Assembly: GCF_033366695.1 (NCBI RefSeq)
Contig: NZ_JAOBTQ010000001.1
Span: forward strand, 7,750,001-7,814,000
Source of the DNA: Streptomyces sp. SCL15-4
GTDB taxonomy: Bacteria > Actinomycetota > Actinomycetes > Streptomycetales > Streptomycetaceae
Direction: 5' to 3'
DNA length: 64,000 bases
Shown here: one piece after another, positions 529-43,988 of the stretch
How positions within the stretch are numbered: the stretch's first letter is position 1
Layout: each line of letters begins with the position of its first letter
The notes under the pieces: generated by a model
Databases searched by the model: none
What the model saw: the letters and a program-made list of their open reading frames with translations, nothing else
What the model was told of the DNA's origin: nothing
Program-made: the position numbers and the translations under genes

Positions 529-616
529 GGACAATGCCAATGTGCCGGCGGCGCGGTGTTCCTAATCTGGTCCTCAGACACCGCGTGAGAGGCGCGTCAT
601 CCCCTAGGGAGCCCGA

Positions 617-5937: not shown

Positions 5938-5984
5938 GTTGGGGCGGGTAGGGGTGGGCGGGCGGCCGCCCCGCGCGCCAGACT
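5938..5984 (+). promoter_or_regulatory. Cluster promoter P1 (thioesterase): tandem heptamer
   Basis: GTTGGGG (5938-5944), CGG, GTAGGGG (5948-5954) form a tandem heptamer with 10-bp spacing. A weak -10 candidate, CAGACT, lies 24 nt downstream (5979-5984). The design matches the other three cluster promoters, though this copy is the least conserved. Confidence 0.55.
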
Positions 5985-6044
5985 GCTGGGGCCCGCCCGT
6001 GCCCCGGCGCGGCGCAGCCACCCCAGGAAGGGAACACCCGCCCC

Positions 6045-6800
6045 ATGACCACGCTCGCCGAGCACGACCGCCTCTGGATCCGCCGCTACCACCCCCGCCC
6101 GGACGCGGCGGCCCGGCTGGTGTGCCTGCCGCACGCCGGCGGCTCGGCGACCTTCTACCACCCGGTCTCGGCGAGCATGCCGGCCTCCGTGGACGTGCTC
6201 GCCGTGCAGTATCCCGGCCGCCAGGACCGCCGTCACGAACCGTGCGCCGCGAGCATCCAGGAGCTGGCCGACCAGGTCACGCCCGCGCTGCTGCCGTGGG
6301 CCGACCGCCCGCTGGTCCTGTTCGGCCACAGCATGGGCGCCTCCCTGGGCTTCGAGGTCGCCCGCCGGCTGGAGCGCGACCACGGCATCGTCCCGAGGGC
6401 CCTGTTCGTCTCCGCCCGCCGCGCCCCCTCCTGCCCGCGCGACGAGTCCGTGCACCTGCGCGACGACGACGGGCTCATCGAGGAGATGCGGCGGCTCAGC
6501 GGCACGGACTCGGCCATCCTGGACGACGTCGAACTGCTCCGCCTGGCCCTGCCCGCCATCCGCGCCGACTACCGGGCCGCCGAGACCTATGCCTACGAGC
6601 CCGGCCCGAACCTGCGCTGCCCCGTCGTCGCGCTGGTAGGCGACGACGACCCGAAGGTCACCGTGGACGAGGCGCGCGCCTGGTCCCGGCACACCGACGC
6701 GTCCTTCGAGTGCCATGTGTTCCAGGGCGGCCACTTCTACCTGACGAGCCACCAGCAGCAGGTGCTCGGCCTGCTCGCGGACACGGCGCTACGGCCCTGA
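6045..6800 (+). CDS. Type II thioesterase
   Basis: This is a 251-residue alpha/beta hydrolase of the discrete editing thioesterase family. Ser96 lies in G-H-S-M-G and the catalytic His in G-G-H-F-Y near the C-terminus, after an oxyanion region L-P-H-A-G-G-S. Such enzymes clear stalled or wrong acyl groups from PKS carrier proteins. It is not a macrocycle-forming domain. It sits behind a copy of the cluster promoter motif, which supports membership in the polyketide regulon. A purine-rich ribosome site (AGGAAGGGA) precedes the ATG with rather long spacing. Confidence 0.9.
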   Translation: MTTLAEHDRLWIRRYHPRPDAAARLVCLPHAGGSATFYHPVSASMPASVDVLAVQYPGRQDRRHEPCAASIQELADQVTPALLPWADRPLVLFGHSMGASLGFEVARRLERDHGIVPRALFVSARRAPSCPRDESVHLRDDDGLIEEMRRLSGTDSAILDDVELLRLALPAIRADYRAAETYAYEPGPNLRCPVVALVGDDDPKVTVDEARAWSRHTDASFECHVFQGGHFYLTSHQQQVLGLLADTALRP

Positions 6801-7224
6801 GATCTCCTCGTCACCGGATACGGCAGCGGGCACCGGGCCGGCGGCGGCGTGCCGGAGGCCGGCTTTCCGGGGACGCCGCGCCTGGTCCGCGCGACGCGGC
6901 CCGGGACGCGTGCCCGGGGCTCAGGTGGTCTCGCCGGCGTCTCCTCGTTCGCCGCCCGCGCCTTCGCCGAGCCGTACGGCATCCGCGGGGTGTGACCGGA
7001 GCCGGACGGCTTCGCCACCGTGGTCCGGCGCGCCTGTGCGGCCGGTGCCACCGGCGGGCGGCCGCCCGGACCGGCCCGTGCGCCGCGGCCCCCGCCTGGC
7101 CGGACCGGTTCCCCGCCCGGGTCGCGGAAGGCACCGCGCCGACCGTGCCGAGGCGGTACGGGAGTTGCTCCAGGTGCTCTTGCGAGCGGTGGCCGCCCCG
7201 CTTCCCGGCCCGGCCCCCGGCAGG
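6801..7224. other. Gene-free region, possible decayed SDR remnant
   Basis: No intact gene is supported here. Directly after the thioesterase stop, the same frame reads an L-L-V-T-G-Y-G-S-G stretch and later S-S-F-A-A-R-A-F-A-E-P-Y-G-I-R before a stop at about 6994. These fragments look like the first and later parts of a short-chain dehydrogenase with the middle missing. The resemblance is weak and may be chance in such GC-rich DNA. Confidence 0.2.
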
Positions 7225-7267
7225 CCGACGGCGGCGGGACCGGGGAGCCCGGTCCCGCCGCCGTCGG
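7225..7267. terminator. Bidirectional terminator hairpin
   Basis: A perfect 20-bp stem (7225-7244 with 7248-7267) with a GAG loop lies between the plus-strand thioesterase and the minus-strand ferredoxin, whose stop codon is only 6 nt away. It can end both convergent transcripts. Confidence 0.8.
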
Positions 7268-7273
7268 GAGAGG

Positions 7274-7465
7274 TCAGCCGTGTACGCGGATCGAACGGGA
7301 CGGGCACAGCTCGGCGGCCTGCGCGACCTGTTCGCGCAGGTCCTCGGCCGGCTCCTCCCGAAGGACGGTGACCAGGCCGTCGGCGTCCTGGTCGAACACC
7401 TCGGGGCTCAGCAGCGCGCACTGGCCGGAGCCCACGCACCGGTCGCGTTCGGTGGTGACACGCAT
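7274..7465 (-). CDS. [3Fe-4S]-type ferredoxin for the P450s
   Basis: The 63-residue protein has the actinomycete P450 ferredoxin pattern: R-D-R-C-V-G-S-G-Q-C (C-x5-C) near residues 8-16 and a last cysteine in E-L-C-P. Three cluster cysteines fit a single 3Fe-4S centre. It would pass electrons from a ferredoxin reductase, not encoded here, to the two adjacent P450s. The ATG at 7465 has a GGAG ribosome site 8 nt upstream, 27 nt after the first P450's stop, so it is the last gene of the minus-strand operon. Confidence 0.88.
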   Translation of the reverse strand: MRVTTERDRCVGSGQCALLSPEVFDQDADGLVTVLREEPAEDLREQVAQAAELCPSRSIRVHG

Positions 7466-7491
7466 CAGGGGTGCTCCGTTCGGGTCGGCCG

Positions 7492-8727
7492 TCACCAGGT
7501 GACGGGGAGTTCGTAGACGCCGTAGACCATGGCGTCGTCCTTGAACCGCAGCTCCGCCACGTCGGCGTCCAGCCGCAGGCCCGGGACGCGGCGCAGCAGC
7601 GTGCCGTAGACCGCCTCCAGCTCCACCCGGGCGAGGTTGGCGCCGATGCACTGGTGGATGCCGTAGCCGAAGGCCAGATGGCTGCGGGCCTCGGCGCGGC
7701 GGATGTCCAGGGTGTCCGGGTCAGGGAAGACCGACTCGTCGTGGTTGGCCGCGTTGTTCAGGGCGAGGATGCCCTCGCCGGCGCGGATGGTGACGTCGCC
7801 GACCTCGATGTCCTCCACCGCGACCCGGGCGGTGCCGGAGTCGGAGATGGAGAAGACGCGCAGCAACTCCTCGACGGCGTTGGGCAGCAACGACGGATCG
7901 GCCCGCAGCGCCTCCATCTGGTCCGGGTGCCGCAGCAGGGCCAGCACCCCGAGCGCGATCATGTTGGCGGTGGTCTCGTGGCCGCCGACCAGCATCAGCC
8001 GGGCCATCGTCACCACGTCGGTGTGGTCGGCGACCTGTTCGGCGCGGTTCTTCTCCAGGAACCGGCTGATCAGGTCGTCGCCCGGCTCCTTCTCCTTCAG
8101 GGTGACCAGCTGGTCGAGGTAGGTGTCCAGGGCCTGCACGGCCGCGCCGTACTCCTCCGGGCTCAGGTCGTGGTTCATCATCGCCGCCGACCACTCCTCG
8201 AACCGCGCGTGGTCCTCGTAGGGCACGCCGAGCAGTTCGCAGATCACCAGGGACGGCACCGGCAGCGCGAGGGCGGTGACGAGGTCGACCGGGCCGCCCG
8301 CCGCCAGCATCGCGTCCACGTGGTCGTCCACGATCTGCTGGATCCGCGGGCGCAGCTCCCGCACCCGCCGGGCGGTGAACTCCGGTATGAGCATGCGGCG
8401 GTGGGCGGTGTGCTCCGGCGGGTCCATGTTCAGCATCATCAGCCGGACCTGCGCCAGCAGTTCCTCGGGGATGTGGAACTGGTGCGGATAGCCCGGCAGT
8501 TTCAGGTTGGAGCTGACCCGGCTGTCGCCCAGCACCTGCCGGACGTGCTCGTGCCGGGTGACCAGCCAGGCCGGCTTGCCGTTCACTTTCAGCGCGGCCC
8601 GGGAGACGGGCTCCTCGGCGCGCATCCCGGCGTACTCGGGCGGCTCGGCGAACGGGCAGGTGCGGCGCAGCGGGAACCGCACCAGCGGCGATTCCGTCTC
8701 GGGTACGGCGTCGGCGGACTGGGTCAT
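7492..8727 (-). CDS. Cytochrome P450 (copy 1)
   Basis: The 411-residue P450 is soluble and bacterial in length. It has the I-helix motif G-G-H-E-T-T-A-N (around 248-255), the ExxR pair in V-E-E-L-L-R (285-290) and the heme loop F-G-Y-G-I-H-Q-C-I-G with Cys360 as thiolate ligand. A late oxidative tailoring role, hydroxylation or epoxidation of the macrolactam, is the likely job. It follows the second P450 by 59 nt with an AAAGG ribosome site. Many blocks are identical to copy 2 (for example the A-L-P-V-P-S-L-V-I-C-E-L-L-G-V-P-Y-E-D-H block near 154-173), showing tandem duplication. Confidence 0.9.
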   Translation of the reverse strand: MTQSADAVPETESPLVRFPLRRTCPFAEPPEYAGMRAEEPVSRAALKVNGKPAWLVTRHEHVRQVLGDSRVSSNLKLPGYPHQFHIPEELLAQVRLMMLNMDPPEHTAHRRMLIPEFTARRVRELRPRIQQIVDDHVDAMLAAGGPVDLVTALALPVPSLVICELLGVPYEDHARFEEWSAAMMNHDLSPEEYGAAVQALDTYLDQLVTLKEKEPGDDLISRFLEKNRAEQVADHTDVVTMARLMLVGGHETTANMIALGVLALLRHPDQMEALRADPSLLPNAVEELLRVFSISDSGTARVAVEDIEVGDVTIRAGEGILALNNAANHDESVFPDPDTLDIRRAEARSHLAFGYGIHQCIGANLARVELEAVYGTLLRRVPGLRLDADVAELRFKDDAMVYGVYELPVTW

Positions 8728-8786
8728 GGCTGCCTTTCGGACGTCGGTGACGGCGGGGGAGGGGGCGGGGCGGCGGGGGTGGGGTG

Positions 8787-10019
8787 TCACCAGGTGACGG
8801 GCAGCTCGTACAGGCCGTAGACGATCGCGTCGTCCTTGAACCGCAGCTCCTCCACCGGGGCGGCCAGGCGCAGCGTCGGGACCCGGGTGAGCAGCGTCGA
8901 GTAGACGACGTCCAGCTCCATGCGGGCCAGGTTCTGGCCGATGCACTGGTGCACGCCGTAGCCGAACGCCAGCTGGCTGCGGGCCTCGCGGCGCACGTCC
9001 AGGCGGTCGGGGTCGGGGAAGACGCGCGCGTCGTGGTTGGCCGCGTTGTTCAGCGGCAGGATGCCCTCGCCGGCCCGGATGGTCACCCCGCCCAGCTCGA
9101 TGTCCTCCAGGGCGACGCGCGCGGTGCCCGCGTCGGAGATGGAGAAGAAGCGCAGCAGCTCCTCCACCGCCCGGGGCATCAGCTCCGGCTCGGCGCGGAC
9201 GGCGGCCAGCTGCTCCGGATGCTCCAGCAGGGCCAGCACGCCGAGGGCGATCATGTTGGCGGTGGTCTCGTGGCCGGTGACGAGCATCAGCTTGGACATG
9301 CTGACGATGTCGGAGTGCTCCACGGCGGGAGTCTGCCGGTTGAACTCGATCAGCCGGCTGATCATGTCGTCGCCGGGCTCGCTCTCCTTGGCGGTGACCA
9401 GTCCGTCCACGTACCGGTCCAGCTCGTAGTGGGCGCGGCCGCGGTCCTCCTCGCTGATGTCGTGGTTCATGATGGCCCACGCCCACTCCTCGAACCGGCC
9501 GTGGTCCTCGTACGGCACGCCGAGCAGTTCGCAGATCACCAGGGAGGGCACCGGCAGCGCGAGCGAGGTGACCAGGTCGACCGGGCCGTCCGCGCCCTTC
9601 TCCAGCATGTGGTCGATCTGCCGGTCCACGATCTGCTGCACCCGGCCGCGCAGCTCGCGCATCCGGCGCACGCTGAACTCCGGTGCCAGCATGCGCCGTT
9701 GGACCGTGTGGTCCGGCGGGTCCATGGAGAGGAAGGTCAGCGGCACCGACTGGAGGATCTCGTCCGGCACCGGCACCTGGAGGGGGTAGCCGGGCAGCTT
9801 CAGGTTCGCGCTGACCCGCTCGTCGCCCAGCAGCTTCTTGTACAGGTCGTGCCGGGTGACCAGCCAGGCGGGCTTGCCGTTGACCTTCAGCCGGGCCCGG
9901 GAGACGGGGGCGGTCTCGCGCAGCTCGGCGTAGGCGGCCGGCGGGCTGAAGGGACAGGCCCGCCGCATCGGGAAGTCCGGCGGCGCGGCCTGGTCGGCCG
10001 GTTCGGCAGGTGCAGTCAT
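8787..10019 (-). CDS. Cytochrome P450 (copy 2)
   Basis: The 410-residue paralogue of the neighbouring P450 is the first gene of the minus-strand operon. It has T-G-H-E-T-T-A-N in the I-helix, V-E-E-L-L-R as the ExxR motif, and the heme loop F-G-Y-G-V-H-Q-C-I-G with Cys359. Both copies end in Y-E-L-P-V-T-W. Two ATG codons lie in tandem (10022 and 10019); the second gives better spacing (5 nt) from AAGAGG and is chosen. Its promoter carries the tandem heptamer on the minus strand. Substrate and position of oxidation cannot be deduced. Confidence 0.9.
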   Translation of the reverse strand: MTAPAEPADQAAPPDFPMRRACPFSPPAAYAELRETAPVSRARLKVNGKPAWLVTRHDLYKKLLGDERVSANLKLPGYPLQVPVPDEILQSVPLTFLSMDPPDHTVQRRMLAPEFSVRRMRELRGRVQQIVDRQIDHMLEKGADGPVDLVTSLALPVPSLVICELLGVPYEDHGRFEEWAWAIMNHDISEEDRGRAHYELDRYVDGLVTAKESEPGDDMISRLIEFNRQTPAVEHSDIVSMSKLMLVTGHETTANMIALGVLALLEHPEQLAAVRAEPELMPRAVEELLRFFSISDAGTARVALEDIELGGVTIRAGEGILPLNNAANHDARVFPDPDRLDVRREARSQLAFGYGVHQCIGQNLARMELDVVYSTLLTRVPTLRLAAPVEELRFKDDAIVYGLYELPVTW

Positions 10020-10110
10020 CATGACCTCTTCGCACGGGAGGGAACGGGACGCGCCGACGCCGGGTCGGCTCCGGGCGCGACGCCGTGCGGCGCCGTCGGC
10101 CGTCCCCCGC

Positions 10111-10157
10111 ACGCTAGGCAGCCACGCCGACGGACCCCAACCCCTAGCCGCCCCTAG
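10111..10157 (-). promoter_or_regulatory. Cluster promoter P2 (P450-ferredoxin operon)
   Basis: Read on the minus strand: CTAGGGG (10157-10151), CGG, CTAGGGG (10147-10141), then 24 nt to TAGCGT (10116-10111) as -10 box. The transcript would start about 85 nt before the P450 ATG. Both heptamers are identical here, the best-conserved copy of the set. Confidence 0.7.
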
Positions 10158-10512
10158 GGAAGGGCGCGGAGCCACCGGCCCGGCGGACGGCGGTCCCCGG
10201 GCGGACGGCGCGGTCGGATTCACCTGGTGTTCCGGGCGCTGTGAGCGTTGCGGGCGCGGTGCGGCGGGTGTTCCGGGTGCCGTCGGCGCGGTGTGGCTGG
10301 TGGCACCCGGGCGCGCCGCCGGTGCCCCGGGCCCGCCGTGCCGCCCGCCGCGGGAGCCGGGAAGTCCGGTGCCCCGGGCGCCGCCGGCATCCCGCCCTCC
10401 GTCGCTCCGCGTACCGCCGGCACCCCCTCCTCCACCGGCCCCGTGCCGCCGGTCACCCTGCCGCCACGTACGGCCCGCACCCCCTCACCCGCCATCCCGC
10501 ACACCGCCGCCA

Positions 10513-10557
10513 CCCCACCCCCGGCCCGCCCCGCCCCCGTGCGCCCCCAGTCCCCCC
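10513..10557 (-). other. G-run tract with quadruplex potential
   Basis: The plus strand has seven runs of three to six C within 45 nt, so the minus strand has seven matching G runs with 1-5 nt loops, ending 8 nt before the starter-operon operator. Such a tract can fold as a G-quadruplex. This is a sequence-only inference. Confidence 0.4.
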
Positions 10558-10565
10558 TGCGCCGC

Positions 10566-10611
10566 CTAGGGGCGGTTAGGGGTCTGGTGGCGGCGTGGGG
10601 GCCGTTAGCGT
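10566..10611 (+). promoter_or_regulatory. Cluster promoter P3 (starter operon)
   Basis: CTAGGGG (10566-10572), CGG, TTAGGGG (10576-10582), then 23 nt to TAGCGT (10606-10611). The -10 box is identical to that of the divergent P450 promoter. Transcription would begin about 100 nt before the VinJ-like gene and cover the coupled genes to 18944. Confidence 0.7.
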
Positions 10612-10723
10612 CGGCTGCGGACCACGGCGGAGACGGTCAGGGCGCCGCACCCGGCCCTCCCGGTCCCGGCCGGTGTCCGCGCCCGGCCGCCGTCCCGTCC
10701 CGCAGCGAGCAGAGGTGATCAGC

Positions 10724-11620
10724 GTGTCCCCGGAAGCCACCGCGAAGGGCACCGTCCCCTTCGGGGAGTACCGGACCTGGTACCGGGTGACCGGCCGGCT
10801 CGGCGCGGGCCGTCCGGCGGTCGTCGCCGTGCACGGCGGGCCCGGCAGCACCCACGACTACCTGCTGCCGCTCGCCCGGCTCGCCGAGGACGGCTGGCCC
10901 GTCGTCCACTACGACCAGCTCGGCAACGGCGGCTCGACCCACCTGCCGGACCAGGACCCCGGGTTCTGGACCGTCGAGCTGTTCGAGGCCGAACTCGCCA
11001 ACCTGATCGAGCGGTTGGGCATCGCCGACGACTATGTGCTGTTCGGCCAGTCCTGGGGCGGCCCGCTGTGCGCCCGGCACGCCATGACCGCCCCGCCCGG
11101 CCTGCGCGGCCTGGTCGTCGCCAACGCGCCCGCCTCCTACCCGCTGTGGCTGAAGGAGATGGCCCGGCTGCGCGCCGCGCTGCCGCCGGAGGTGGAGGAC
11201 ACCCTGCGGCGGCACGAGGCGGCCGGCACCTACGACAGCGAGGAGTACCTCGCCGCGATGCGGGTCTTCTACGACCGCCATGTGTGCCGGGTGACGCCCT
11301 GGCCCCGGGACTTCCTGTCCTCCTTCATGGAGATCTACAACGACCCCACCGTGTACTACGCGATGAACGGCCCCAACGAGTTCCACGTCATCGGCTCCCT
11401 GAAGGACTGGTCGATCGTCGGCGACCTGCACCGCGTCCGCACCCCGACCCTGCTGATCAGCGGACGCCACGACGAGGCCACACCGGCCGTCGTCCAGCCG
11501 TATTACGACGAGATCCCCGGGGCCCGCTGGGAGATCTTCGAGGAGTCCAGCCACCTTCCGCACCTGGAGGAACCCGAGCGGTTCCGCGCGGTGCTGACCG
11601 ACTTCCTCAAGAGCCTGTGA
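10724..11620 (+). CDS. Proline iminopeptidase-like aminopeptidase (VinJ-like)
   Basis: This 298-residue alpha/beta hydrolase has H-G-G-P-G-S (38-42) and nucleophile Ser110 in G-Q-S-W-G-G, with Asp in S-G-R-H-D and His in S-S-H-L-P-H. In vicenistatin-type pathways the VinJ family removes the N-terminal protecting amino acid (alanine) from the finished polyketide amine before ring closure. Position at the head of the starter operon fits that role. GTG at 10724 is chosen because AGAGG lies 8 nt upstream; GTG 10715 is an in-frame alternative. Specificity is inferred from context. Confidence 0.85.
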   Translation: MSPEATAKGTVPFGEYRTWYRVTGRLGAGRPAVVAVHGGPGSTHDYLLPLARLAEDGWPVVHYDQLGNGGSTHLPDQDPGFWTVELFEAELANLIERLGIADDYVLFGQSWGGPLCARHAMTAPPGLRGLVVANAPASYPLWLKEMARLRAALPPEVEDTLRRHEAAGTYDSEEYLAAMRVFYDRHVCRVTPWPRDFLSSFMEIYNDPTVYYAMNGPNEFHVIGSLKDWSIVGDLHRVRTPTLLISGRHDEATPAVVQPYYDEIPGARWEIFEESSHLPHLEEPERFRAVLTDFLKSL

Positions 11621-11634
11621 AAGGGGACGTGGCC

Positions 11635-12570
11635 ATGGCACACGACACCGCCCTCGTCTTCCCCGGCATGGGACCCGTCCCGTTCGCCGAGGTGGGCAGG
11701 TTCATGGTGGCGAACCCCATCGCCCGGGACCTGGTCGCCGTCGCCGACGAGGCACTCGGCTACTCCCTCGTGGACGCCTTCCGCACCTCCCCGGGCGACT
11801 ACTCCGAGGCCGCCCAGGTCGCGTTCTTCCTCAACTGCCTGGCCTGCGCCCACTGGGCGGAGGAACACCTCGGCGTGGAGCCCGGCATCGTCGCCGGGCC
11901 CAGCTTCGGCGAGAAGGCGGCCCTCGCCTACACCGGCGCCCTGGAACTCCCCGACGCCGTCCGCCTCACCGCGGAGATCGCCCGCTGCCTGGAGGAGTAC
12001 TTCGCCGTCGAGCACCGGGACATCGTGACCCTCTCCTTCGTCCGCGCCCCGCGCGACGGCCTCGACGCGATCCTCGCCGAACTGGACGAGGCGGGGGAGT
12101 GGCACGAGATCTCCTGCCACATCGACGACGGCTTCTACATGGTGTCCCTCTCCGAACACCGCGTGCCCTGGTTCCAGGAGCGGCTGCGCGCCCTCGGCAG
12201 CCTCCCCCTGTACACCATGCGGCCTCCCATGCACGCCTCGGCGTTCGCGTCGCTGCGCGAGAAGGCCGCCCGCGAGGTGGTGTCCCGCTACACCTTCGCC
12301 GACCCCCGGCTGCCCGTCGTCGCCGACCAGGACGGCCGGCTGCTGCGCACCGGCGAGGAACTGCGCACCATGCTCCTCGACGGCTTCGACCACCCGATGG
12401 ACTGGCCGAGCGTCACCACGGCCCTGAAGGACGCCGGCGCCCGCCGGATGTGCGTCGCCGGACCCGACAGCCTGTTCGGCCGGGTGCCGTGCACGACCCG
12501 CCAGTTCGACGTCGTCGCGGCCCAGCCGCGGCTGGCGATGACCCCCCGGCGCCGTACCCGCGCCGCCTGA
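11635..12570 (+). CDS. Discrete acyltransferase (VinK-like), dipeptidyl transfer
   Basis: The 311-residue protein is a stand-alone AT-fold enzyme: F-P-G-M-G near the start, nucleophile Ser90 in A-G-P-S-F-G-E, and the likely catalytic His in P-P-M-H-A-S. The G-P-S-F-G-E version differs from the G-H-S-x-G of extender ATs, as expected for enzymes that move an aminoacyl-beta-aminoacyl group between carrier proteins. It would transfer the capped starter from the ACP at 12597 to the N-terminal ACP of PKS1. AAAGGGGA precedes the ATG by 7 nt. Confidence 0.85.
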   Translation: MAHDTALVFPGMGPVPFAEVGRFMVANPIARDLVAVADEALGYSLVDAFRTSPGDYSEAAQVAFFLNCLACAHWAEEHLGVEPGIVAGPSFGEKAALAYTGALELPDAVRLTAEIARCLEEYFAVEHRDIVTLSFVRAPRDGLDAILAELDEAGEWHEISCHIDDGFYMVSLSEHRVPWFQERLRALGSLPLYTMRPPMHASAFASLREKAAREVVSRYTFADPRLPVVADQDGRLLRTGEELRTMLLDGFDHPMDWPSVTTALKDAGARRMCVAGPDSLFGRVPCTTRQFDVVAAQPRLAMTPRRRTRAA

Positions 12571-12596
12571 CCCCGCCCGACTCCTTGGAGGCCCCC

Positions 12597-12851
12597 ATGT
12601 GGGACGACCGGTTCGAACAGATACTCCGCCCCTTCCTGCCGTTCCTCCCCCCGCAGGAGGAGCTGACGCCGGAGTCCGACCTGAAGGACCTCGGCCTGGA
12701 CTCCCTCGGCACCGTCCAGCTGCTCGGCACGCTGGAGGAGGACTACCAGGTCCGCTTCCGCGACAGCGCGCTGACCATGGACACCTTCCGCACCGCCGGT
12801 GTGCTGTGGGACACGCTGCGCGGCATGCTGCAGCAGAGCACCGCGGGCTGA
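12597..12851 (+). CDS. Discrete acyl carrier protein (VinL-like)
   Basis: This 84-residue carrier protein has the phosphopantetheine site L-G-L-D-S-L-G with Ser36. It carries the beta-amino acid starter during loading, decarboxylation and capping, before hand-over to the PKS. It is acidic and short, as usual for stand-alone ACPs. The ATG has GGAGG 6 nt upstream. It lies between the acyltransferase and the adenylation enzymes that act on it. Confidence 0.9.
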   Translation: MWDDRFEQILRPFLPFLPPQEELTPESDLKDLGLDSLGTVQLLGTLEEDYQVRFRDSALTMDTFRTAGVLWDTLRGMLQQSTAG

Positions 12852-12864
12852 CGGGGCGGCCACC

Positions 12865-14433
12865 GTGGACCCCACCGTGGACGGCACGCTGTCCGGCCGG
12901 TTCGCGCGCGGCCTGGCCCTCGCCCCCGACCGGCCCGCGCTGCGCGCCGACGGCGTCGACCTCACCTACCGCGAACTGCACGAGAGCGCCCTGGTCCGGG
13001 CCGGTTCGCTGCTCGCCGGGCTTCCCGGCCGGCCGCCCGCCGTGGGGGTGCTGGCCGGCAAGGGGCCCACGGCGTACGCCACGCTGCTGGCCGGCCTGTA
13101 CAGCGGCGTCACCGTCGTTCCCCTCCAGCCCGCCTTCCCCGCCGCCCGCACCCGGCGGATGATCGAGGCCGCCGGGGTCGGCGCGCTGCTCGCCGACGAC
13201 GACGCCCTGCCCGCTCTGACCGCGCTGCACGAGGACGGTGTGCGGCTGCCGACACTGTTCGCGCCCGGCGCACACCCGATGCCCGCCCTCGCCCTCGACC
13301 CGGACAGCGCCCTGAAGGCGCCCCAGCCCGCCCGGCCCTCCGACATCGCCTACGTGCTGTTCACCTCCGGCTCCACCGGCCGGCCCAAGGGCGTACCGGT
13401 CACCCACGCCAACACCGCCCACTACTTCGGCCTGCTCGACCGGCGCTACGACTTCGGGCCGCACGACGTCTTCTCGCAGACCTTCGACCTCAACTTCGAC
13501 TGCGCGATGTTCGACCTGTTCTGCGCCTGGGGCGCCGGCGCCACCGTCGTCCCCGTACCGGCCCGGGCCTACGCGCGCCTGCCGGAGTTCGTGGCCGAGC
13601 AGCGGATGACCGTGTGGTTCTCCACACCCAGCGCCATCACCCTGGTGCGCCGCACCGGCGGGCTCGCACCGGGCGCCCTAGCCTCGCTGCGCTGGAGCTT
13701 CTTCGCGGGAGAGGCGCTCGGCTGCAAGGACGCCGAGGACTGGGCCGCCGCCGCGCCGGGCGCCGCGCTGGAGAACCTCTACGGCCCCACCGAGCTGACC
13801 ATCACCATCACCGCGCAGCGCTGGACGCCCGGCCCGCAGCCGAACGGCATGGTGCCCATCGGCGCCGTCCACCCCGGTCACGACACCCTGCTGCTCGGCC
13901 CCGACGGCGCGCCCTGCACCGGCGACGAAGGCGAACTCTGCATCGCCGGACCCCAGTTGACCCCCGGCTATCTCGACCCGGCCGACGACGCCGGGCGGTT
14001 CCTCCAGCGCGACGGCCGGCGCTACTACCGCACCGGCGACCGGGTCCGGCGCGCCGACGGCGGCGGCTGGCACTACCTGGGCCGCAAGGACGCACAGGTC
14101 CAGGTGCACGGCATCCGGGTGGAGCTGGCCGAGGTGGACGCCGCCGCCCGCACCTGTCCGGGCGTCGAGGACGCCGTGACGGTGGCGGTGCCCGTGGACG
14201 GCACCGTGGAACTCGCCGTCTTCCACACCGGCACGCCCGTGCCGCCCGCCCGGCTCGCCCGTCATCTGCGCGAGCTGCTGCCGGCCGCCGTGGTCCCGCG
14301 CGCCTACCACCACCTGGACACCCTCCCGCTCAACGCCAACCGCAAGACCGACCGCAGGAAGCTCGCCTCCCGGGCCGCGGCCATGCGGCAGCCCGCCGGA
14401 GGCACACACGAAAGGCGGCAGGAGTCGCAGTGA
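12865..14433 (+). CDS. Amino acid adenylation enzyme (VinM-like), capping
   Basis: This 522-residue stand-alone A domain has the core motifs L-F-T-S-G-S-T-G-R-P-K-G, Y-G-P-T-E-L-T, Y-R-T-G-D-R-V, and N-A-N-R-K-T-D with the catalytic lysine. There is no carrier or condensation domain. In VinM-type systems such enzymes activate an amino acid (alanine) and attach it directly to the amine of the ACP-bound beta-amino acid as a protecting group. Alanine is inferred from the pathway, not from the pocket. The GTG start at 12865 has only a weak ribosome site; an in-frame GTG follows at 12877. Its stop overlaps the next start by 4 nt (GTGA). Confidence 0.85.
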   Translation: MDPTVDGTLSGRFARGLALAPDRPALRADGVDLTYRELHESALVRAGSLLAGLPGRPPAVGVLAGKGPTAYATLLAGLYSGVTVVPLQPAFPAARTRRMIEAAGVGALLADDDALPALTALHEDGVRLPTLFAPGAHPMPALALDPDSALKAPQPARPSDIAYVLFTSGSTGRPKGVPVTHANTAHYFGLLDRRYDFGPHDVFSQTFDLNFDCAMFDLFCAWGAGATVVPVPARAYARLPEFVAEQRMTVWFSTPSAITLVRRTGGLAPGALASLRWSFFAGEALGCKDAEDWAAAAPGAALENLYGPTELTITITAQRWTPGPQPNGMVPIGAVHPGHDTLLLGPDGAPCTGDEGELCIAGPQLTPGYLDPADDAGRFLQRDGRRYYRTGDRVRRADGGGWHYLGRKDAQVQVHGIRVELAEVDAAARTCPGVEDAVTVAVPVDGTVELAVFHTGTPVPPARLARHLRELLPAAVVPRAYHHLDTLPLNANRKTDRRKLASRAAAMRQPAGGTHERRQESQ

Positions 14434-15956
14434 ACGGTCAACCGACAGTGCCGGCCCGCACCGACGCCCGGGTGCACGACCTGCTCGACGAGGCCACCGC
14501 CGAGCGCCCCGACGCACCGGCGGTCACCGACGCCGCGGGCCGCTGGACGTACCGGGAACTGGCCGCCCACAGCCACGCCGTCGACGCCTGGCTGCGGGCG
14601 GCCGGCATCGGCCCCGGCGACCGGGTCCTGGTCCAGCTGCCCAGCACCCGGGAACTCGTCGCGCTGCTGTACGGCACCGCGCGGTGCGGCGCGGTCCTCG
14701 TCCCCGTGAACACCGGCATGAAGGACTACCACCTGCGGGCGGTGGTGGAGAACGCCGAGCCCTCGCTGATCATCGTCGCCGACACGGCCGTGGACCGGAT
14801 CGGTGCCCTCGCCGGCGAGGTGCCGGTCCGCGGGCTCGGCCCGGCCTGGCGGGAGATCACCGCGCTGCGCGAGCGCGGGGCCCGCGGCGCCGGAATCCCG
14901 GTCGGCGCCGACGACATCGCCGTCCTCGTCTACACCTCCGGCTCCACCGCCGCGCCCAAGGCGGTGATCTGCCCGCACGGCCGGATGGTCTTCGCCACCG
15001 AGGCCATCAACCTCGAACTCGGCTACCGCCCCGACGACGTGGTGTTCTGCCGCTTCCCGATCTCCTGGGACTACGGCCTGTACAAGGTGCTGCTCACCGC
15101 CGCCGGCCGCAGCGAACTCGTCCTCGCCGACGGAGACTCCGACCTGGTGCTGCTGCGCCGCATCCGGGAGACCGGCGCCACCGTCGTCCCGATCGTGCCG
15201 TCCCTGGCCACCATGATCTGCGCCCTCGCCGAACGCGAACCGGCCCGCGAGTCCCGGGTGCGACTGTTCACCAACACCGGTGCCGCGCTGCCGAAGGCCA
15301 CCGCCGACGCCCTGCGCACGGCGTTCCCCGGCGCCGAGGTGGTCGTCCAGTTCGGGCAGACCGAGTGCAAACGCGTCTCCGTGCTGCCGCCCGCCTTCCA
15401 GGACGCCAAGCCCGGCTCGGTCGGCCGCCCGCTGCCCGGCACCCGCGCCTTCGTCGTGGACGACGAGGGCCGGCCGCTGCCGCCCTGGCGGACCGGCGAG
15501 ATCGTCGTCGAGGGACCGCACGTCATGCCCGGCTACTGGCGGGCCCCGGAGCAGACCGCCCGCGCCTTCCGCCCCGTCCCCGGCGGCGGACTGCGGCTGC
15601 ACACCGGCGACTTCGGCCATGTCGACGAGGACGGCTTCCTGTACTACGAGGGCCGCCGCGACGACATGTTCAAGCACAAGGGCGTCCGCATGAGCACCAC
15701 CGAGATCGAGGCCGCCGCCACCGACGTCCCCGGCGTCCGCGCCGCCGCCGTCCTGCCGCCCGCCGAGGACCGCCCGCTCGCGGTGTTCGCCGAGGGCGAC
15801 ATCGACCCGCACACCCTGCTGAAGGAACTGTCGCTGCGGCTGGAGCCCGCCAAGGTGCCCGCCGTGAGCCGGGTCGTCGGCGAACTGCCGCTCACACCGC
15901 ACGGCAAGCACGACCGCAAGGCGCTCGCCCGCCTCCTGGAAGGAACCACCGCGTGA
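14430..15956 (+). CDS. Beta-amino acid adenylation enzyme (VinN-like)
   Basis: The 508-residue acyl-AMP ligase loads the starter on the discrete ACP. Motifs: V-Y-T-S-G-S-T-A-A-P-K, F-G-Q-T-E-C-K-R, H-T-G-D-F-G-H, and a C-terminal catalytic Lys in P-H-G-K-H-D-R-K. Asp214 in I-S-W-D-Y-G and the pair Lys314-Arg315 fall 16 positions before Asp230 and Lys330-Arg331, which I recall as the VinN residues that bind the beta-amine and the alpha-carboxylate of 3-methylaspartate. The constant offset supports a 3-methylaspartate (or aspartate) substrate, consistent with the glutamate mutase genes downstream. It is coupled to both neighbours by GTGA overlaps. Confidence 0.87.
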   Translation: MNGQPTVPARTDARVHDLLDEATAERPDAPAVTDAAGRWTYRELAAHSHAVDAWLRAAGIGPGDRVLVQLPSTRELVALLYGTARCGAVLVPVNTGMKDYHLRAVVENAEPSLIIVADTAVDRIGALAGEVPVRGLGPAWREITALRERGARGAGIPVGADDIAVLVYTSGSTAAPKAVICPHGRMVFATEAINLELGYRPDDVVFCRFPISWDYGLYKVLLTAAGRSELVLADGDSDLVLLRRIRETGATVVPIVPSLATMICALAEREPARESRVRLFTNTGAALPKATADALRTAFPGAEVVVQFGQTECKRVSVLPPAFQDAKPGSVGRPLPGTRAFVVDDEGRPLPPWRTGEIVVEGPHVMPGYWRAPEQTARAFRPVPGGGLRLHTGDFGHVDEDGFLYYEGRRDDMFKHKGVRMSTTEIEAAATDVPGVRAAAVLPPAEDRPLAVFAEGDIDPHTLLKELSLRLEPAKVPAVSRVVGELPLTPHGKHDRKALARLLEGTTA

Positions 15957-17215
15957 CCGCCACCGAACCGGCCGGGCACACCCGCCGCGTGACCGCCGCC
16001 GAACTGGCCGAGCGCTTCGGCACCCCGGCCTACGTCTACGACCTGGACCGGGTGGCGGCGGCCCGCGACGACCTGTTCGCCGCGCTGCCCGACGAGGTCG
16101 AGGTGTTCTACGCCGCCAAGGCCAACCCCCACCCCGAACTGCTGCGCGAGCTGCGCACCGGCGGCTGCCGCGCCGAGATCAGCTCCGTCGGCGAACTCGA
16201 CGCCGTGCTGCGCGCCGGGTTCACCGGCGACCGCGTCCTGTTCACCGGACCCGGCAAGACCACCGGGGAACTGACCGAGGCCCTGACCCGGGGCGTGCGG
16301 CTGTTCTCCGCCGAGTCCCACGGCGACCTGCGCCGCATCGGCGAGACGGCGCTCGGGCTGGGCCTGACCGCCGACTGCCTGCTCCGCGTCAACAACGCCA
16401 CCGGCGCCGCGGCCACCGGCATCCGCATGACCGGCGTGCCCTCGCAGTTCGGCTTCGACAGCGAGACCCTGCCCGACCTCGCCGCCGAACTGCGCGAGAT
16501 TCCCGGCACCCGCGTCGCCGGCCTGCACTTCTTCCCGCTGAGCAACGCCAAGGACGAGGCGAGCCTGATCGCCGAGTTCCGGCACACCATCGCCACCGCC
16601 GCAGCCCTCCAGCGGGCCCTCGGCGTCACCTTCCGCTTCCTCGACATCGGCGGCGGATTCGCCGCTCCCTACGCCGTCCAGGGCACCCGGCCCGTCTACG
16701 GCGAGCTGCGCGACGCCCTCGCCCGGACGCTGGACGAGCACTTCCCCGGCTGGCGCTCCGGCGCCCCCCGGATCGCCTGCGAGTCGGGCCGCTACCTGGT
16801 CGCCGACAGCGGCACCCTGCTCACCTCCGTCGTCAACGTCAAGGACAGCCGCGACCACCGCTACCTCGTCCTCGACGCCGGCATCAACACCTTCGGCGGC
16901 ATGTCCGGCCTCGGCCGCATCCTGCCCGTGTCCGTCGAACCCCACGAGTCCGTGGGCGCCGACGGCACCCCGGCGAGCCTGGCCGGCCCGCTGTGCACGC
17001 CGGGCGACCTGCTCGGCCGGAACGTCCCGCTGCCCGCGCTCACCCCGGGCGACCTGCTCACCGTCCCCAACGCCGGCGCCTACGGCCCCACGGCCAGCCT
17101 GCTGATGTTCCTCGGCCGGCCCGCGCCCGCCGAGATCGTCGTACGCGGCGACGACCTCGTGTCCGTCTCCCGCATCGAGCACACCCGCACCTACGACCAC
17201 GGACAGGCCCTGTGA
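15953..17215 (+). CDS. PLP-dependent decarboxylase (VinO-like)
   Basis: This 420-residue fold-III (alanine racemase/DAP decarboxylase type) enzyme has the PLP lysine Lys56 in Y-A-A-K-A-N-P-H, the glycine-rich phosphate site D-I-G-G-G-F and the C-terminal E-S-G-R-Y motif. In the vicenistatin pathway VinO decarboxylates 3-methylaspartyl-ACP to 3-amino-2-methylpropionyl-ACP, so the substrate is probably carrier-bound. AAGGA lies 8 nt before the GTG start, which overlaps the preceding stop by 4 nt. Its stop overlaps the mutase gene by 1 nt. Confidence 0.88.
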   Translation: MTATEPAGHTRRVTAAELAERFGTPAYVYDLDRVAAARDDLFAALPDEVEVFYAAKANPHPELLRELRTGGCRAEISSVGELDAVLRAGFTGDRVLFTGPGKTTGELTEALTRGVRLFSAESHGDLRRIGETALGLGLTADCLLRVNNATGAAATGIRMTGVPSQFGFDSETLPDLAAELREIPGTRVAGLHFFPLSNAKDEASLIAEFRHTIATAAALQRALGVTFRFLDIGGGFAAPYAVQGTRPVYGELRDALARTLDEHFPGWRSGAPRIACESGRYLVADSGTLLTSVVNVKDSRDHRYLVLDAGINTFGGMSGLGRILPVSVEPHESVGADGTPASLAGPLCTPGDLLGRNVPLPALTPGDLLTVPNAGAYGPTASLLMFLGRPAPAEIVVRGDDLVSVSRIEHTRTYDHGQAL

Positions 17216-17667
17216 TGAGCCCCTTCCCGACCACCCCCGACCCCGGCGCCCGGCCCGTGCTGGTGGCCGGCGGCATCTCCGACTCCCACACCTGGAACCT
17301 CGTCTACCTCCAGCTCCTGCTGGAGGAGCACGGGCACCGCGTGGTCAACCTCGGCCCCTGCGTCCCCGAGGACCTGCTCATCGCCGAGGCCCTCGCGCAC
17401 CGCCCCGTGCTCATCGTGGTCAGCAGCGTCAACGGCCACGGCTACCACGACGGCATGCGGACCGTCACCCGGCTGCGCGAACACCCCGCCCTCGCCACCG
17501 TGCCCGCCGTCATCGGCGGCAAGCTCGGCATCGCCGGGCCCTCGGGCGCCGAGGAGGTGGCCGCGCTGCGCGCCGCCGGGTACGACGCGGTGTTCGACGA
17601 CAGCGCCGAGGGCGTCGCCGCCTTCCGGCGGATGCTCGGCGAGCTGCCGCAGCGGGCCCTGGTGTGA
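17215..17667 (+). CDS. glmS: Glutamate (methylaspartate) mutase, small B12-binding subunit
   Basis: The 150-residue protein is the cobalamin-binding subunit. Asp23 and His25 (S-D-S-H-T-W-N) form the D-x-H part of the B12 motif with His25 as cobalt ligand; V-S-S-V-N-G and I-G-G-K-L-G complete it. The glycine that usually ends D-x-H-x-x-G is Asn28. With the large subunit it interconverts L-glutamate and 3-methylaspartate, the starter precursor. It is coupled upstream by TGATG and downstream by GTGA. This glmS is the mutase sigma subunit, not the glucosamine synthase of the same name. Confidence 0.9.
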   Translation: MSPFPTTPDPGARPVLVAGGISDSHTWNLVYLQLLLEEHGHRVVNLGPCVPEDLLIAEALAHRPVLIVVSSVNGHGYHDGMRTVTRLREHPALATVPAVIGGKLGIAGPSGAEEVAALRAAGYDAVFDDSAEGVAAFRRMLGELPQRALV

Positions 17668-18944
17668 CCGGCGGCGGGTTCGGCGCGTTCGTGCGCCGGG
17701 CTCACGACGCCGGCCACCTGGTGGTGCAGCCCCGGATGGGGATGAGCAGCCCGCGCCGGATGCGGGCCGGGCTGCTCGCCACCCGCGACGCGCGGGCGAC
17801 CACCGTCGGCACCATCACCCTGGACAGCTACACCCGGGTCGGTGATCTGGAGTCGGCGCGCCTGGCGGTCCTGGAGGGCGTGGCCCTCAACGGCTACCCG
17901 ATCGTGAGCCACGACGCGGCCACCACCGCTGGCGTCCTCGACGACATCCACGGACCCGGCTTCCCGGTCCAGGTCCGGCACGGCTCCGCCGCGCCGCAGG
18001 ACATCTTCCGGGCGCTGACCGCCGTGGGGCTGGACGCCTCCGAGGGCGGCCCGGTCTCCTACTGCCTGCCCTACGGCCGGGTCCCGCTGCGCGCGTCCGT
18101 CGCCCACTGGGCCGCCGCCTGCGAACTGCTCGCCGCCCACCGGGAGCCGGGCACCGAACCGCACCTGGAGACCTTCGGCGGCTGCGTCCTCGGCCAGCTG
18201 TGCCCGCCCAGCCTGCTCGTCGCCGTCAGCGTGCTGGAGGCGCTGTTCTTCCACCGGCACGGCATCCGCAGCATTTCCGTCAGTTACGCCCAGCAGACCC
18301 ATCCCGGCCAGGACGCCGAAGCGGTGGCCGCGCTGCGCCGCCTGTGCGCGGAGCATCTGCCGGACACCGAATGGCATGTCGTCGTCTACGCCTACATGGG
18401 GCTGTATCCGGAAACGGAACAGGGCGCCTACCGGCTGCTCGGAAAAGCGGCCGAACTCGCCGTCGCCAGCGGCTCGGAACGGCTCATCGTGAAAACCGTC
18501 GCGGAATCCCGCCGCATTCCCACGGTGGCCGAGAACGTCGCCGCCCTGGAATACGCCGCCGAGGTCGCCGCCCGCACCCCGCGCGCCCCGCTGGACGCCA
18601 CCGGCACCCAGACCTACGCCGAGGCGTCCGCCCTGGTGAACGCCGTACTGGGGCTGGACGACGACCTCGGTACGGCCCTGCTGACGGCGTTCGCCGAGGG
18701 ACTGCTCGACGTGCCCTACTGCCTGCATCCGGACAACGCCGGATTCAGCCGGAGTCATATCGCCGCGGACGGCCGGCTGGCCTGGACCGACGTCGGCAGG
18801 ATGCCGCTGACCGGCATCGCCGACGTACGCCCGGCCCGCGCCGTCACCGCCGCGGAACTGCTCGATTCCCTGTCATACGTACGCCGTTCGTTCGACGGAC
18901 ACGCTCCCGGGAACATCCGGGCCGTCGAATCCGCCCACCCCTAG
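17664..18944 (+). CDS. glmE: Glutamate (methylaspartate) mutase, large subunit
   Basis: The 426-residue catalytic epsilon subunit carries the substrate-binding barrel. Recognisable parts are Q-P-R-M-G-M near residue 25, T-L-D-S-Y-T-R-V (a family signature) near 52, V-R-H-G-S-A near 110 and the T-F-G-G-C-V-L-G-Q-L-C-P-P-S block near 170. It is somewhat shorter than clostridial GlmE, as seen in secondary-metabolite versions. The last gene of the coupled starter operon, it supplies 3-methylaspartate. Its stop codon lies inside the PKS promoter's heptamer. Confidence 0.9.
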   Translation: MTGGGFGAFVRRAHDAGHLVVQPRMGMSSPRRMRAGLLATRDARATTVGTITLDSYTRVGDLESARLAVLEGVALNGYPIVSHDAATTAGVLDDIHGPGFPVQVRHGSAAPQDIFRALTAVGLDASEGGPVSYCLPYGRVPLRASVAHWAAACELLAAHREPGTEPHLETFGGCVLGQLCPPSLLVAVSVLEALFFHRHGIRSISVSYAQQTHPGQDAEAVAALRRLCAEHLPDTEWHVVVYAYMGLYPETEQGAYRLLGKAAELAVASGSERLIVKTVAESRRIPTVAENVAALEYAAEVAARTPRAPLDATGTQTYAEASALVNAVLGLDDDLGTALLTAFAEGLLDVPYCLHPDNAGFSRSHIAADGRLAWTDVGRMPLTGIADVRPARAVTAAELLDSLSYVRRSFDGHAPGNIRAVESAHP

Positions 18945-18986
18945 GGGTGGTTAAGGGTGTGGCCTTTCGAGGGCCGTCACTACGGT
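18941..18986 (+). promoter_or_regulatory. Cluster promoter P4 (PKS operon)
   Basis: CTAGGGG (18941-18947), TGG, TTAAGGG (18951-18957), then 23 nt to TACGGT (18981-18986). The first heptamer overlaps the TAG stop of glmE (18942-18944). The start point would be near 18993, leaving a leader of only about 17 nt that still contains the GGTGAGG ribosome site. Confidence 0.7.
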
Positions 18987-19009: not shown

Positions 19010-29734
<10,725 letters not shown>

Positions 29735-29844
29735 CCCCACCCGGTGCCGGACGACGCGCCGCGTCCGGCACCGGGCCATCCGCACCCGGCGCACCCGCCA
29801 CCGCGTCACCAGCGCCGCCGAGCCAGCAGGGAGCGACACCGACC

Positions 29845-40365
<10,521 letters not shown>

Positions 40366-43250: not shown

Positions 43251-43514
43251 CGTGCCTCTCCCCATGGATTCTTTATGCCGAACCGGATCGTGCTCCGCTT
43301 TCCGCGTGATGGGTGATGGCGGGGTGTCACGCGACGGTGCGTGGAGAGTTCACAAGGGCGGCGACGGCGCCGCAAAGGCGGCGCGCCGAACCCGCCCGGT
43401 CCCTGGCGGACGACTGCTGGCCGGCGGCACGAGCGCGTGGCCGCCGGTGTGGTCCCTGCCTGCATCGCGAGAGGCGTTGCATCCTCTGGTCTCCCGTAGG
43501 TGCCGCGTACTGTC

Positions 43515-43567
43515 GACACCCCGAATCGGTTCCAGCCAACAATTGGCTGGAACCGATTCGGGGTGTC
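43515..43567. repeat. 25-bp perfect inverted repeat with 3-nt spacer
   Basis: The arms 43515-43539 and 43543-43567 are exact reverse complements around CAA. It lies upstream of both divergent genes, about 265 nt before the LAL start and 550 nt before the kdp genes, so it is not at the end of any annotated transcript. It could be a large operator, a cruciform, the terminator of an unseen small RNA, or a mobile-element remnant. Confidence 0.7.
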
Positions 43568-43988
43568 CACGGCTTTGCTGGTCGAATCCTGAATTAAAGA
43601 TTACGAACACATAGCAGATCGAAACGCTATCTGTCCAGACCAACGTTGTCAACTGTCGTCATGTATCGGTCAGTTGTCGTTGTGCGAGGTCTCCTGCCTA
43701 CTGGCCGGACGGTCCGTCGAGGCATCGTTTTACGGGCAGTTCATTTACCGGATGGTTAATGAAAGGAGCCGGGCAGGATCAATCGTGAGATCGGTCACGC
43801 GAAAGGCGCCATGGCTGCCCGTTCGGGCATCGGGCCCTGTTGGAGGGCCGGTCGGGGGAGGGCCGAGCCGGTGTACCCGCCGTCCACGCGGCGGGCCCCG
43901 CGATGACCGGGCGCACCGGGCGTATACAGCCGGGCCGGCCGTACGGCGGGGAGGACGTTCACCTCGAACGCCCGGTATCGACCGGCAG

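What the first reader, a model, noticed from the sequence alone, without database searches (positions are those of the whole stretch)
5938..18986. One promoter architecture shared by four transcription units of the polyketide cluster
A tandem heptamer (consensus CTAGGGG, N3, YTARGGG; 10-bp spacing) occurs at 5938-5954, 10141-10157 (minus), 10566-10582 and 18941-18957. Each is followed 23-24 nt later by a TAnnnT-like -10 box: CAGACT, TAGCGT, TAGCGT, TACGGT. Repeat, spacing and orientation all track the direction of transcription. This defines a regulon: thioesterase, P450s-ferredoxin, starter operon, PKS. The LAL regulator at 40455-43250 is the natural ligand. I recall no published site with exactly this form.
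Basis: partly seen in the sequence, partly recalled or inferred. Interest (0 to 1): 0.8.

Follow-up and report, generated by a model that had tools for sequence, protein, structure and literature searches.

The report
Shared activator switch of macrolactam clusters
A short repeated DNA tag sits at nearly the same distance before the main gene groups of a macrolactam (antibiotic-type) gene cluster, is kept in related clusters of many soil bacteria, and is most likely the landing site of the cluster's own activator protein.

Summary
The observation largely holds. Three sites match CTAGGGG-N3-YTARGGG exactly; they are the only exact matches in the 8.4-Mb genome, with none at one mismatch. The fourth (5938) is a degenerate copy with three mismatches and no TAnnnT box, but its second unit is kept in 5 of 5 orthologs. 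Near relatives of this sceliphrolactam-type cluster keep the starter-operon, PKS and P450 boxes wherever their contigs reach. I found a fifth, degenerate box 30 kb outside the window, before an upstream PKS operon, kept in 4 of 4 genomes where that gene start was found. In 59 more distant macrolactam loci, tandem TARGGG pairs at 10- or 11-bp spacing number 67 against 1 for the reversed control; 53 have TAnnnT 22-25 nt downstream against 0, 46 of them after merging look-alikes. Inverted pairs are not enriched. Best reading: the operator of the cluster's LAL activator (40455-43265), placed like MalT boxes upstream of a missing -35. Linkage and one LAL recognition-helix type support this, but binding is untested and 7 of 22 boxed distant clusters checked have no LAL on the same contig. 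New variant of a known kind.

The parts
5938..5954 (+). Degenerate tandem box upstream of the thioesterase gene (GTTGGGGCGGGTAGGGG); second unit perfect, first lacks TA
   Evidence: kept in 5 of 5 orthologs with DNA there
5979..5984 (+). -10-like CAGACT of the thioesterase promoter; weak, but AGACTGCYGG is kept in 4 of 5 and GACTGCTGG in the fifth
10141..10157 (-). Tandem box CTAGGGGCGGCTAGGGG of the P450 promoter
10111..10116 (-). -10 TAGCGT of the P450 promoter, 24 nt after the box; no -35 (best TTGACA match 3 mismatches)
10566..10582 (+). Tandem box CTAGGGGCGGTTAGGGG of the starter-unit operon
10606..10611 (+). -10 TAGCGT of the starter operon, 23 nt after the box; no -35 (4 mismatches)
18941..18957 (+). 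Tandem box CTAGGGGTGGTTAAGGG of the PKS promoter; its first TAG is the stop codon of the MutE gene
18981..18986 (+). -10 TACGGT of the PKS promoter, 23 nt after the box; no -35 (3 mismatches)
40455..43265 (-). LAL activator gene (936 aa; AAA_16 8-174, Walker A GGPGTGKT at 37, GerE 861-912); proposed ligand
43624..43652 (-). Likely own promoter of the LAL gene: TTGACA-17-TAGCGT; no TARGGG unit in the 500 bp upstream of the gene
6045..6800 (+). Type II thioesterase gene (target unit)
7492..10019 (-). Two P450-type genes (target unit); only 7492-8730 was scanned by Pfam, the other by likeness
10724..18944 (+). Starter operon (Vin-type labels recalled and matched to PMC5785472; AMP-binding, B12-binding and MutE domains tested)
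19010..40365 (+). Two PKS genes, four extension modules (target unit)

Best explanation
The tandem box is the operator of a cluster-specific LAL activator. Shown: a direct repeat TAGGGG-N4(5)-TARGGG(T), on one face of the helix, lies upstream of the main biosynthetic transcription units of this sceliphrolactam-type macrolactam cluster, 22-25 nt before a TAGCGT-like -10 and without a -35 (the thioesterase copy is degenerate, with a poor -10). Inferred: the STAND-type LAL at 40455-43265 is made from its own TTGACA-TAGCGT promoter; once active it multimerises, two C-terminal LuxR-type HTH domains occupy the two units at about -52 to -36 from the start site, and they recruit housekeeping RNA polymerase to promoters that lack a -35. 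This would switch on thioesterase, P450s, starter operon and both PKS operons together, as MalT does at mal promoters.
For: Genome: 3 exact matches, all in this cluster. Near records (VinN 83% or more, 21 of them), counting those whose DNA reaches the place: starter box 20 of 20, PKS box 21 of 21, P450 box 17 of 17, some at one mismatch to the 17-mer; thioesterase box 5 of 5; upstream-PKS box 4 of 4 where that gene start was found. Distant set: 67 pairs vs 1 control, 53 with TAnnnT at 22-25 nt vs 0, 41 of 59 loci, 46 site groups after merging look-alikes; spacing peaks at 10 (43) and 11 (24), then 20/21 (14/6); inverted pairs 0-3 per spacing. LAL: of the 13 other genomes with the conserved starter box, 11 hold a full-length LAL ortholog (70-87%), G378 a fragment, G102 none. 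G069, with a 60% LAL, has three boxes. A LAL lies on the same contig in 15 of 22 boxed distant clusters checked. Of 37 isolated exact sites, 5 lie within 10 kb of a LAL (0.16 expected) and 9 within 50 kb (0.81 expected). Pairs occur near 8 of 23 LALs with helix STVEQHLT and 0 of 16 others, P 0.008. The target promoters lack a -35, the LAL's own has a perfect one. In the related auroramycin cluster a luxR gene was put under kasO*p to activate the whole cluster (PMC6943886 passage; not said there to be a LAL).
Against: No binding, start-site or expression data. 7 of 22 boxed distant clusters have no LAL on the same contig (L131, L139, L141, L161, L163, L166, L167; some contigs are short); five of them were searched again with most or all candidates scored, without change. 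2 of 3 box-less clusters checked (L117, L122) do have a LAL, and of 11 distant loci with a LAL inside the fetched DNA 4 have no box (L117, L122, L128, L157). 18 of 59 distant loci have no box in the fetched DNA. Two of the 15 linkages are loose: L165 about 64 kb and L153 about 74 kb from VinN, the latter LAL in two pieces. A NarL-type response regulator (5279-5923) is also in the cluster; homologs lie in 7 of 59 distant loci, 6 of them boxed, and within about 65 kb in 5 of 25 genomes. The thioesterase box and its -10 are poor. The helix test rests partly on look-alike loci (L197/L199/L201; L226/L228), so about 5 independent cases; 15 of 23 STVEQHLT neighbourhoods have no pair. The 33 LALs with that helix were picked by likeness to the window's.
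Confidence: 0.75

Rival explanations
1. The tandem box is bound by the cluster's NarL-type response regulator (5279-5923, the counterpart of SceY) rather than by the LAL.
For: It has a LuxR-type GerE domain, lies beside the thioesterase gene, and is 94-97% identical in the 4 orthologs whose fetched DNA held it. The sce cluster has two LuxR-type regulators (PMC5785472 section 8). Homologs lie inside 7 of 59 distant loci, 6 of them boxed, and homologs of 64-82% are linked in 5 of 25 distant genomes.
Against: 11 boxed distant clusters with a LAL on the contig (L121, L127, L133, L134, L136, L145, L149, L151, L153, L165, L172) showed no such response regulator within 500 kb or on the contig among the scored candidates (E 1e-52; up to 122 candidates a genome scored). 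Isolated sites lie near LALs.
Confidence: 0.11
2. A SARP-family activator, whose operators are heptamer direct repeats, binds the box.
For: Heptamers one helical turn apart; 11-bp spacing occurs in 24 pairs of the distant set, as at SARP sites, and PimR weakly protects a pair with 10-bp units (PMC3367932 passages).
Against: The LAL shows no SARP domain in Pfam; the sce cluster is described with two LuxR-type regulators; the main spacing is 10 bp and the box ends 23-24 nt before the -10, whereas SARPs are said to contact the -35. Not every ORF of the cluster was scanned.
Confidence: 0.04
3. The repeats are a core-promoter or DNA-structure element used by the polymerase or a global regulator, not by a cluster regulator.
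For: Nearly the same distance to the -10 everywhere; seven boxed distant clusters lack a LAL on the contig.
Against: Only three exact copies in an 8.4-Mb genome, all in one cluster; a global element would be scattered. The LAL gene's own promoter has a -35 and no box.
Confidence: 0.06
4. Chance G-rich repeats in 75% GC DNA.
For: At up to 3 mismatches the window has no excess (15 vs 13.0).
Against: Whole-genome uniqueness, reversed-pattern controls and conservation.
Confidence: 0.01

Closest known systems
MalT boxes of E. coli and Klebsiella mal promoters (MalT, a STAND activator often named as the model LAL)
   Same: G-rich asymmetric units, published as two sites in direct repeat (a title in the reference list of PMC7567727), bound cooperatively after multimerisation (PMC4381067 passage); in E. 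coli malP a GGATGAGG unit ends 25 nt before TAGCGA (my reading of the -10)
   Different: MalT core is GGA(T/G)GA within GGGGA(T/G)GAGG (PMC7567727 passage); here it is TAGGGG. Recognition helices differ (ATTIKTHIRNLYQKL vs ISTVEQHLTRVYRKL)
Actinoplanes MalT motif TCATCC-5nt-GGATGA
   Same: Actinobacterial MalT-like regulator; motif 3' end about 34 nt from start sites, at the -35 (PMC7567727 passages)
   Different: Inverted repeat with a MalT-like core; controls a maltose-dependent region
PAS-LuxR sites CTVGGGAWWTCCCBAG (PimM type; consensus read in a passage of PMC9942304)
   Same: Half-site CTAGGG resembles one unit; LuxR-type HTH activators of polyketide clusters
   Different: Palindrome, not tandem; 0 matches at up to 3 mismatches in the window; inverted pairs not enriched in macrolactam loci
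SARP operators (heptamer direct repeats)
   Same: Two heptamers about one helical turn apart
   Different: Other sequences, mostly 11-bp units, at the -35 (PMC3367932 passages)
LAL SCO6993 sites of S. coelicolor
   Same: LAL-family regulator with footprints
   Different: Short palindromes, a repressor, no consensus could be given (PMC9628970 passages)

Membership tests
Operator of a LAL (STAND-type LuxR) activator, MalT-like | Two or more units in direct repeat | tested here: met
Operator of a LAL (STAND-type LuxR) activator, MalT-like | Units just upstream of the -35 region of a promoter lacking a good -35 | tested here: met
   22-25 nt to the -10; TTGACA matches with 3-4 mismatches at the window's three exact boxes and 2-4 at 31 distant ones, no better than background; start sites not mapped
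Operator of a LAL (STAND-type LuxR) activator, MalT-like | MalT core sequence GGA(T/G)GA | tested here: not met
   units are TARGGG; so MalT-like in architecture, not a MalT box
Operator of a LAL (STAND-type LuxR) activator, MalT-like | Cognate LAL gene in or near the cluster | tested here: inconclusive
   present here; on the same contig in 15 of 22 boxed and 2 of 3 box-less distant clusters checked
Operator of a LAL (STAND-type LuxR) activator, MalT-like | Protein binds the units and activates transcription | not testable with these tools
   needs EMSA, footprint, reporter
LAL family (protein 40455-43265) | About 900 aa, N-terminal NTPase with Walker A/B, C-terminal LuxR HTH | tested here: met
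SARP operator | Heptamer repeats at the -35 and a SARP gene in the cluster | tested here: not met
   box ends 23-24 nt before the -10, main spacing 10 bp, no SARP domain in the LAL; not every cluster ORF was scanned
PAS-LuxR site | Palindrome CTVGGGAWWTCCCBAG | tested here: not met

The most novel reading that the evidence does not exclude
TAGGGG-N4/5-TAGGGGT-N22-25-TAGCGT is a general actinobacterial 'LAL box': the common operator of LAL activators with the recognition helix STVEQHLT in macrolactam and other biosynthetic clusters. The regulons of many silent clusters could then be read from sequence, and one LAL-box reporter, or swapping such LALs, would work across genera.
Probability: 0.43. 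Interest if true: 0.75.

Novelty: new variant of a known kind. Interest (0 to 1): 0.62.

Why it matters
LAL proteins are common cluster-situated activators of type I polyketide pathways, yet the passages I saw of papers on them give no consensus site or unrelated palindromes. A sequence-defined operator with a fixed -10 spacing, kept over many genera, makes it directly testable which site these regulators bind, lets regulons be read from genomes, and gives a rule for switching on silent macrolactam clusters. It also links antibiotic-cluster activators to the MalT mode of activation.

Tried and rejected
Rejected: a chance origin for the exact sites; PAS-LuxR palindromes; inverted-repeat geometry; the 2-mismatch sites 601-617 (-) and 54160-54176 (-), which show no TAnnnT at 23-24 nt in the sequence printed. 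Arrays of CTAGGGG in G366 and G309 (L079, L080) look like simple tandem repeats; neither stretch matched the cluster proteins and I did not follow them further. The LAL gene has no TARGGG unit in 500 bp upstream.

Led nowhere: the literal string CTAGGGG in papers gives 1,382 papers, 30 listed, none relevant by title. A longer string that I recalled from patent literature on FkbN-type LAL sites, CTAGGGGGTTGC, is in 0 held papers. I could not check patents, so a TAGGGG-type LAL site may have been described there (recalled, unverified).

Limits of counts: the 25 distant genomes searched for LALs were chosen by me out of 59 loci, mostly because they carried boxes, so no presence/absence association can be read from them. 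The 32 genomes were those with isolated exact sites (G146 was left out of the test). From the isolated sites I dropped G146:C1:911204, which looks like a P450 box on a broken contig, and one overlapping duplicate each in G362 and G366; two overlapping sites in G309 stayed in. The LAL lists are incomplete, because only 27-36 candidates a genome were scored. The neighbourhoods were picked from LAL hits, leaving out LALs within about 45 kb of known exact sites (one at 51 kb, L235, was kept); L218 could not be classified and L232 (STIEQHLT) was counted with the others. The null assumes uniform positions and does not model the clustering of biosynthetic genes. For the upstream-PKS box I fetched 13 stretches of 7 genomes and found the orthologous gene start in 3 of them (G363, G181, G255); the stretches of G052, G355, G029 and G069 did not show it.
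Full report
What is there. The window (75% G+C) lies in an 8.42-Mb genome at C1:7750001-7814000. Around the sites are a NarL-type response regulator (5279-5923), a type II thioesterase (6045-6800), two P450-type genes on the minus strand, a starter operon with AMP-binding, B12-binding and glutamate-mutase MutE domains, two PKS genes with four KS-AT-DH-KR-ACP modules, and a 936-aa LAL with AAA_16 and GerE domains. The layout matches the sceliphrolactam cluster of PMC5785472 (passages and section 8 seen): Vin-type starter genes, two P450s, two LuxR-type regulators (926 and 214 aa), a histidine kinase and ABC transporters. More PKS modules lie upstream of the window.

Check of the observation. 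Three sites match CTAGGGG-N3-YTARGGG exactly and have TAGCGT or TACGGT 23-24 nt further on. In the whole genome, at up to two mismatches, there are 31 matches; the three with none are these, and none has one. The reversed control pattern gives 175 matches at that tolerance, so the box pattern is rarer than its control. The site at 5938 is degenerate (three mismatches), and CAGACT is not a TAnnnT box.

Conservation in near relatives. An exact search of 392 genomes of the genus finds 45 with a match. Thirteen of them besides the own genome carry the starter-operon box in an orthologous cluster, 12 with an exact PKS box about 8.4 kb away and G378 with a one-mismatch PKS box. Of the 80 named loci found with the VinN protein, the 21 near ones (83% or more) keep the PKS box in 21 of 21, the starter box in 20 of 20 that reach it, and the P450 box in 17 of 17 that reach it, each with TAnnnT at 23-24 nt, some at one mismatch to the 17-mer. 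Not reaching: L098 for the starter box; L095, L098, L100 and L104 for the P450 box. Over all 80 loci that scan found 103 sites against 0 for the reversed pattern. The thioesterase box is kept in 5 of 5 aligned orthologs as a TGGGG or CGGGG first unit and a TAGGGG second unit, with (A)GACTGCYGG downstream. One clade carries a further box before a short-chain dehydrogenase-like gene.

A fifth unit. Scanning 60 kb of own-genome flank, I found CTGGGGGCCGTAGGGG with TAGCCT 24 nt downstream, about 30 kb before the window start (L236:10147) and a little over 100 bp before an upstream PKS gene. It is kept in the 4 genomes in which that gene start was found (own, L239, L240, L241); in stretches of four more genomes the start was not found. 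Like the thioesterase box, it has a degenerate first unit and a perfect second one.

Distant clusters. In 59 loci with VinN of 77% identity or less, from Streptomyces, Saccharothrix, Actinosynnema, Amycolatopsis, Nonomuraea, Actinomadura, Kitasatospora and others (1.15 Mb), TARGGG pairs peak sharply at 10 bp (43) and 11 bp (24), then 20 and 21 bp (14 and 6); other spacings from 6 to 40 bp give 0-3 and the reversed control 0-2. Of 67 pairs at 10 or 11 bp, 53 have TAnnnT 22-25 nt downstream (control: 1 pair, 0 with the box); 41 of 59 loci have such a promoter in the fetched DNA and 18 have none. Merging look-alikes leaves 46 site groups. The aligned consensus of the 31 sites with 10-bp spacing is TAGGGG-N4-TAGGGGT with a -10 of TAGCGT. 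Convergent and divergent arrangements are not enriched, and there is no -35; the window's three exact boxes have none either, while the LAL gene's own promoter has a perfect one. Many of these boxes lie about 200 bp before VinN where VinN seems to lead a transcription unit, whereas in the window VinN lies inside an operon and the box stands before its first gene.

Which protein. The LAL is the best candidate. (a) Among the 13 other genomes with the conserved starter box, 11 have a full-length LAL ortholog (70-87% identity), G378 a fragment, and G102 (1,420 contigs) none; G069, with a 60% LAL, has three boxes. (b) In 25 distant genomes searched, a LAL lies on the cluster's contig in 17 (L165 about 64 kb and L153 about 74 kb from VinN): 15 of the 22 with a box and 2 of the 3 without. 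Of the seven boxed clusters without one, five were searched again with most or all candidates scored, with no change; L131 and L141 are on short contigs. Inside the fetched DNA of the 59 loci, 11 hold a LAL, 7 of them boxed and 4 not. (c) Thirty-seven isolated exact sites in the genus lie near LALs more often than uniform placement predicts: 5 vs 0.16 within 10 kb, 9 vs 0.81 within 50 kb; some of these are themselves macrolactam loci (G156). (d) Of 40 LAL neighbourhoods, pairs occur near 8 of 23 LALs with recognition helix STVEQHLT and 0 of 16 with other helices, one unclassified (one-sided Fisher P 0.008); 4 of the 8 have the -10. Some of the 8 are look-alikes, so I count about 5 independent cases. 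(e) All 33 LALs aligned have STVEQHLT, though they were picked by likeness to the window's. (f) In the auroramycin cluster a luxR gene was put under a strong promoter to activate the whole cluster (PMC6943886, passages seen). The rival response regulator is linked in 5 of 25 distant genomes and lies inside 7 of 59 distant loci, 6 of them boxed; it cannot be excluded.

How it would work. The LAL gene has a TTGACA-17-TAGCGT promoter of its own; similar TTGAC...TAnnnT promoters were found in eight other orthologs and not within 480 bp in four (L084, where the stretch I cut begins inside it, L085, L088, L093). Its targets have the same kind of -10 but, in place of a -35, the tandem box ending about 36 nt before the presumed start. 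That is the arrangement of an activator touching the polymerase, and it resembles MalT: multimerisation gives cooperative binding to boxes and polymerase recruitment (PMC4381067 passage). In E. coli malP a box ends 25 nt before TAGCGA (the -10 assignment is mine). The core sequence and recognition helix differ from MalT, so this is MalT-like in architecture and not a MalT box.

What is not shown. There are no binding, start-site or expression data here; the LAL as ligand is inference from linkage. The general 'LAL box' reading is bolder: it rests on isolated sites and 8 of 23 neighbourhoods, and 15 of those 23 had no pair in the roughly 20 kb fetched. In the passages I saw, LAL papers gave no such motif, and the string searches found none. 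Patents and most subscription papers are not covered.

Noticed in passing
L236:10147 (own genome C1:7720147, 29.9 kb before the window): Fifth conserved degenerate box, CTGGGGGCCGTAGGGG with TAGCCT, before an upstream PKS operon; the cluster extends well beyond the window.
   Followed up: yes
window 43516-43566: Long perfect hairpin in the leader between the LAL promoter and the LAL start; not seen as such in the aligned orthologs.
   Followed up: partly
window 40455-43265: Two TTA codons (81 and 91) early in the LAL gene, suggesting bldA-dependent translation of the activator.
   Followed up: no
L068:5414, L108:670, L110:653, L111:614, L107:1071: One clade of orthologous clusters has an extra box before a short-chain dehydrogenase-like gene (label by eye), so the regulon gains members.
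   Followed up: partly
window 18941-18944: The PKS promoter box overlaps the stop codon of the MutE gene, so the operator begins inside the upstream coding end.
   Followed up: no
L197, L199, L201: Three similar loci with TAGGGG pairs followed by GTTTGAAGGGG near a LAL but no TAnnnT at 22-25 nt; possibly another promoter geometry.
   Followed up: no
L226:7794, L228:7787: Three TARGGG-like units (TTAGGGG, CTAAGGG, TTAGGGG) before TTAGGGT next to a LAL; a possible triple-box promoter.
   Followed up: no
L079:6398-6434 and L080:632-678: Short head-to-tail CTAGGGG arrays that look like simple tandem repeats, not promoters.
   Followed up: partly
window 48090-48722: A kdpC gene follows the LAL some 5 kb on, suggesting that the cluster ends near the LAL gene.
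   Followed up: partly
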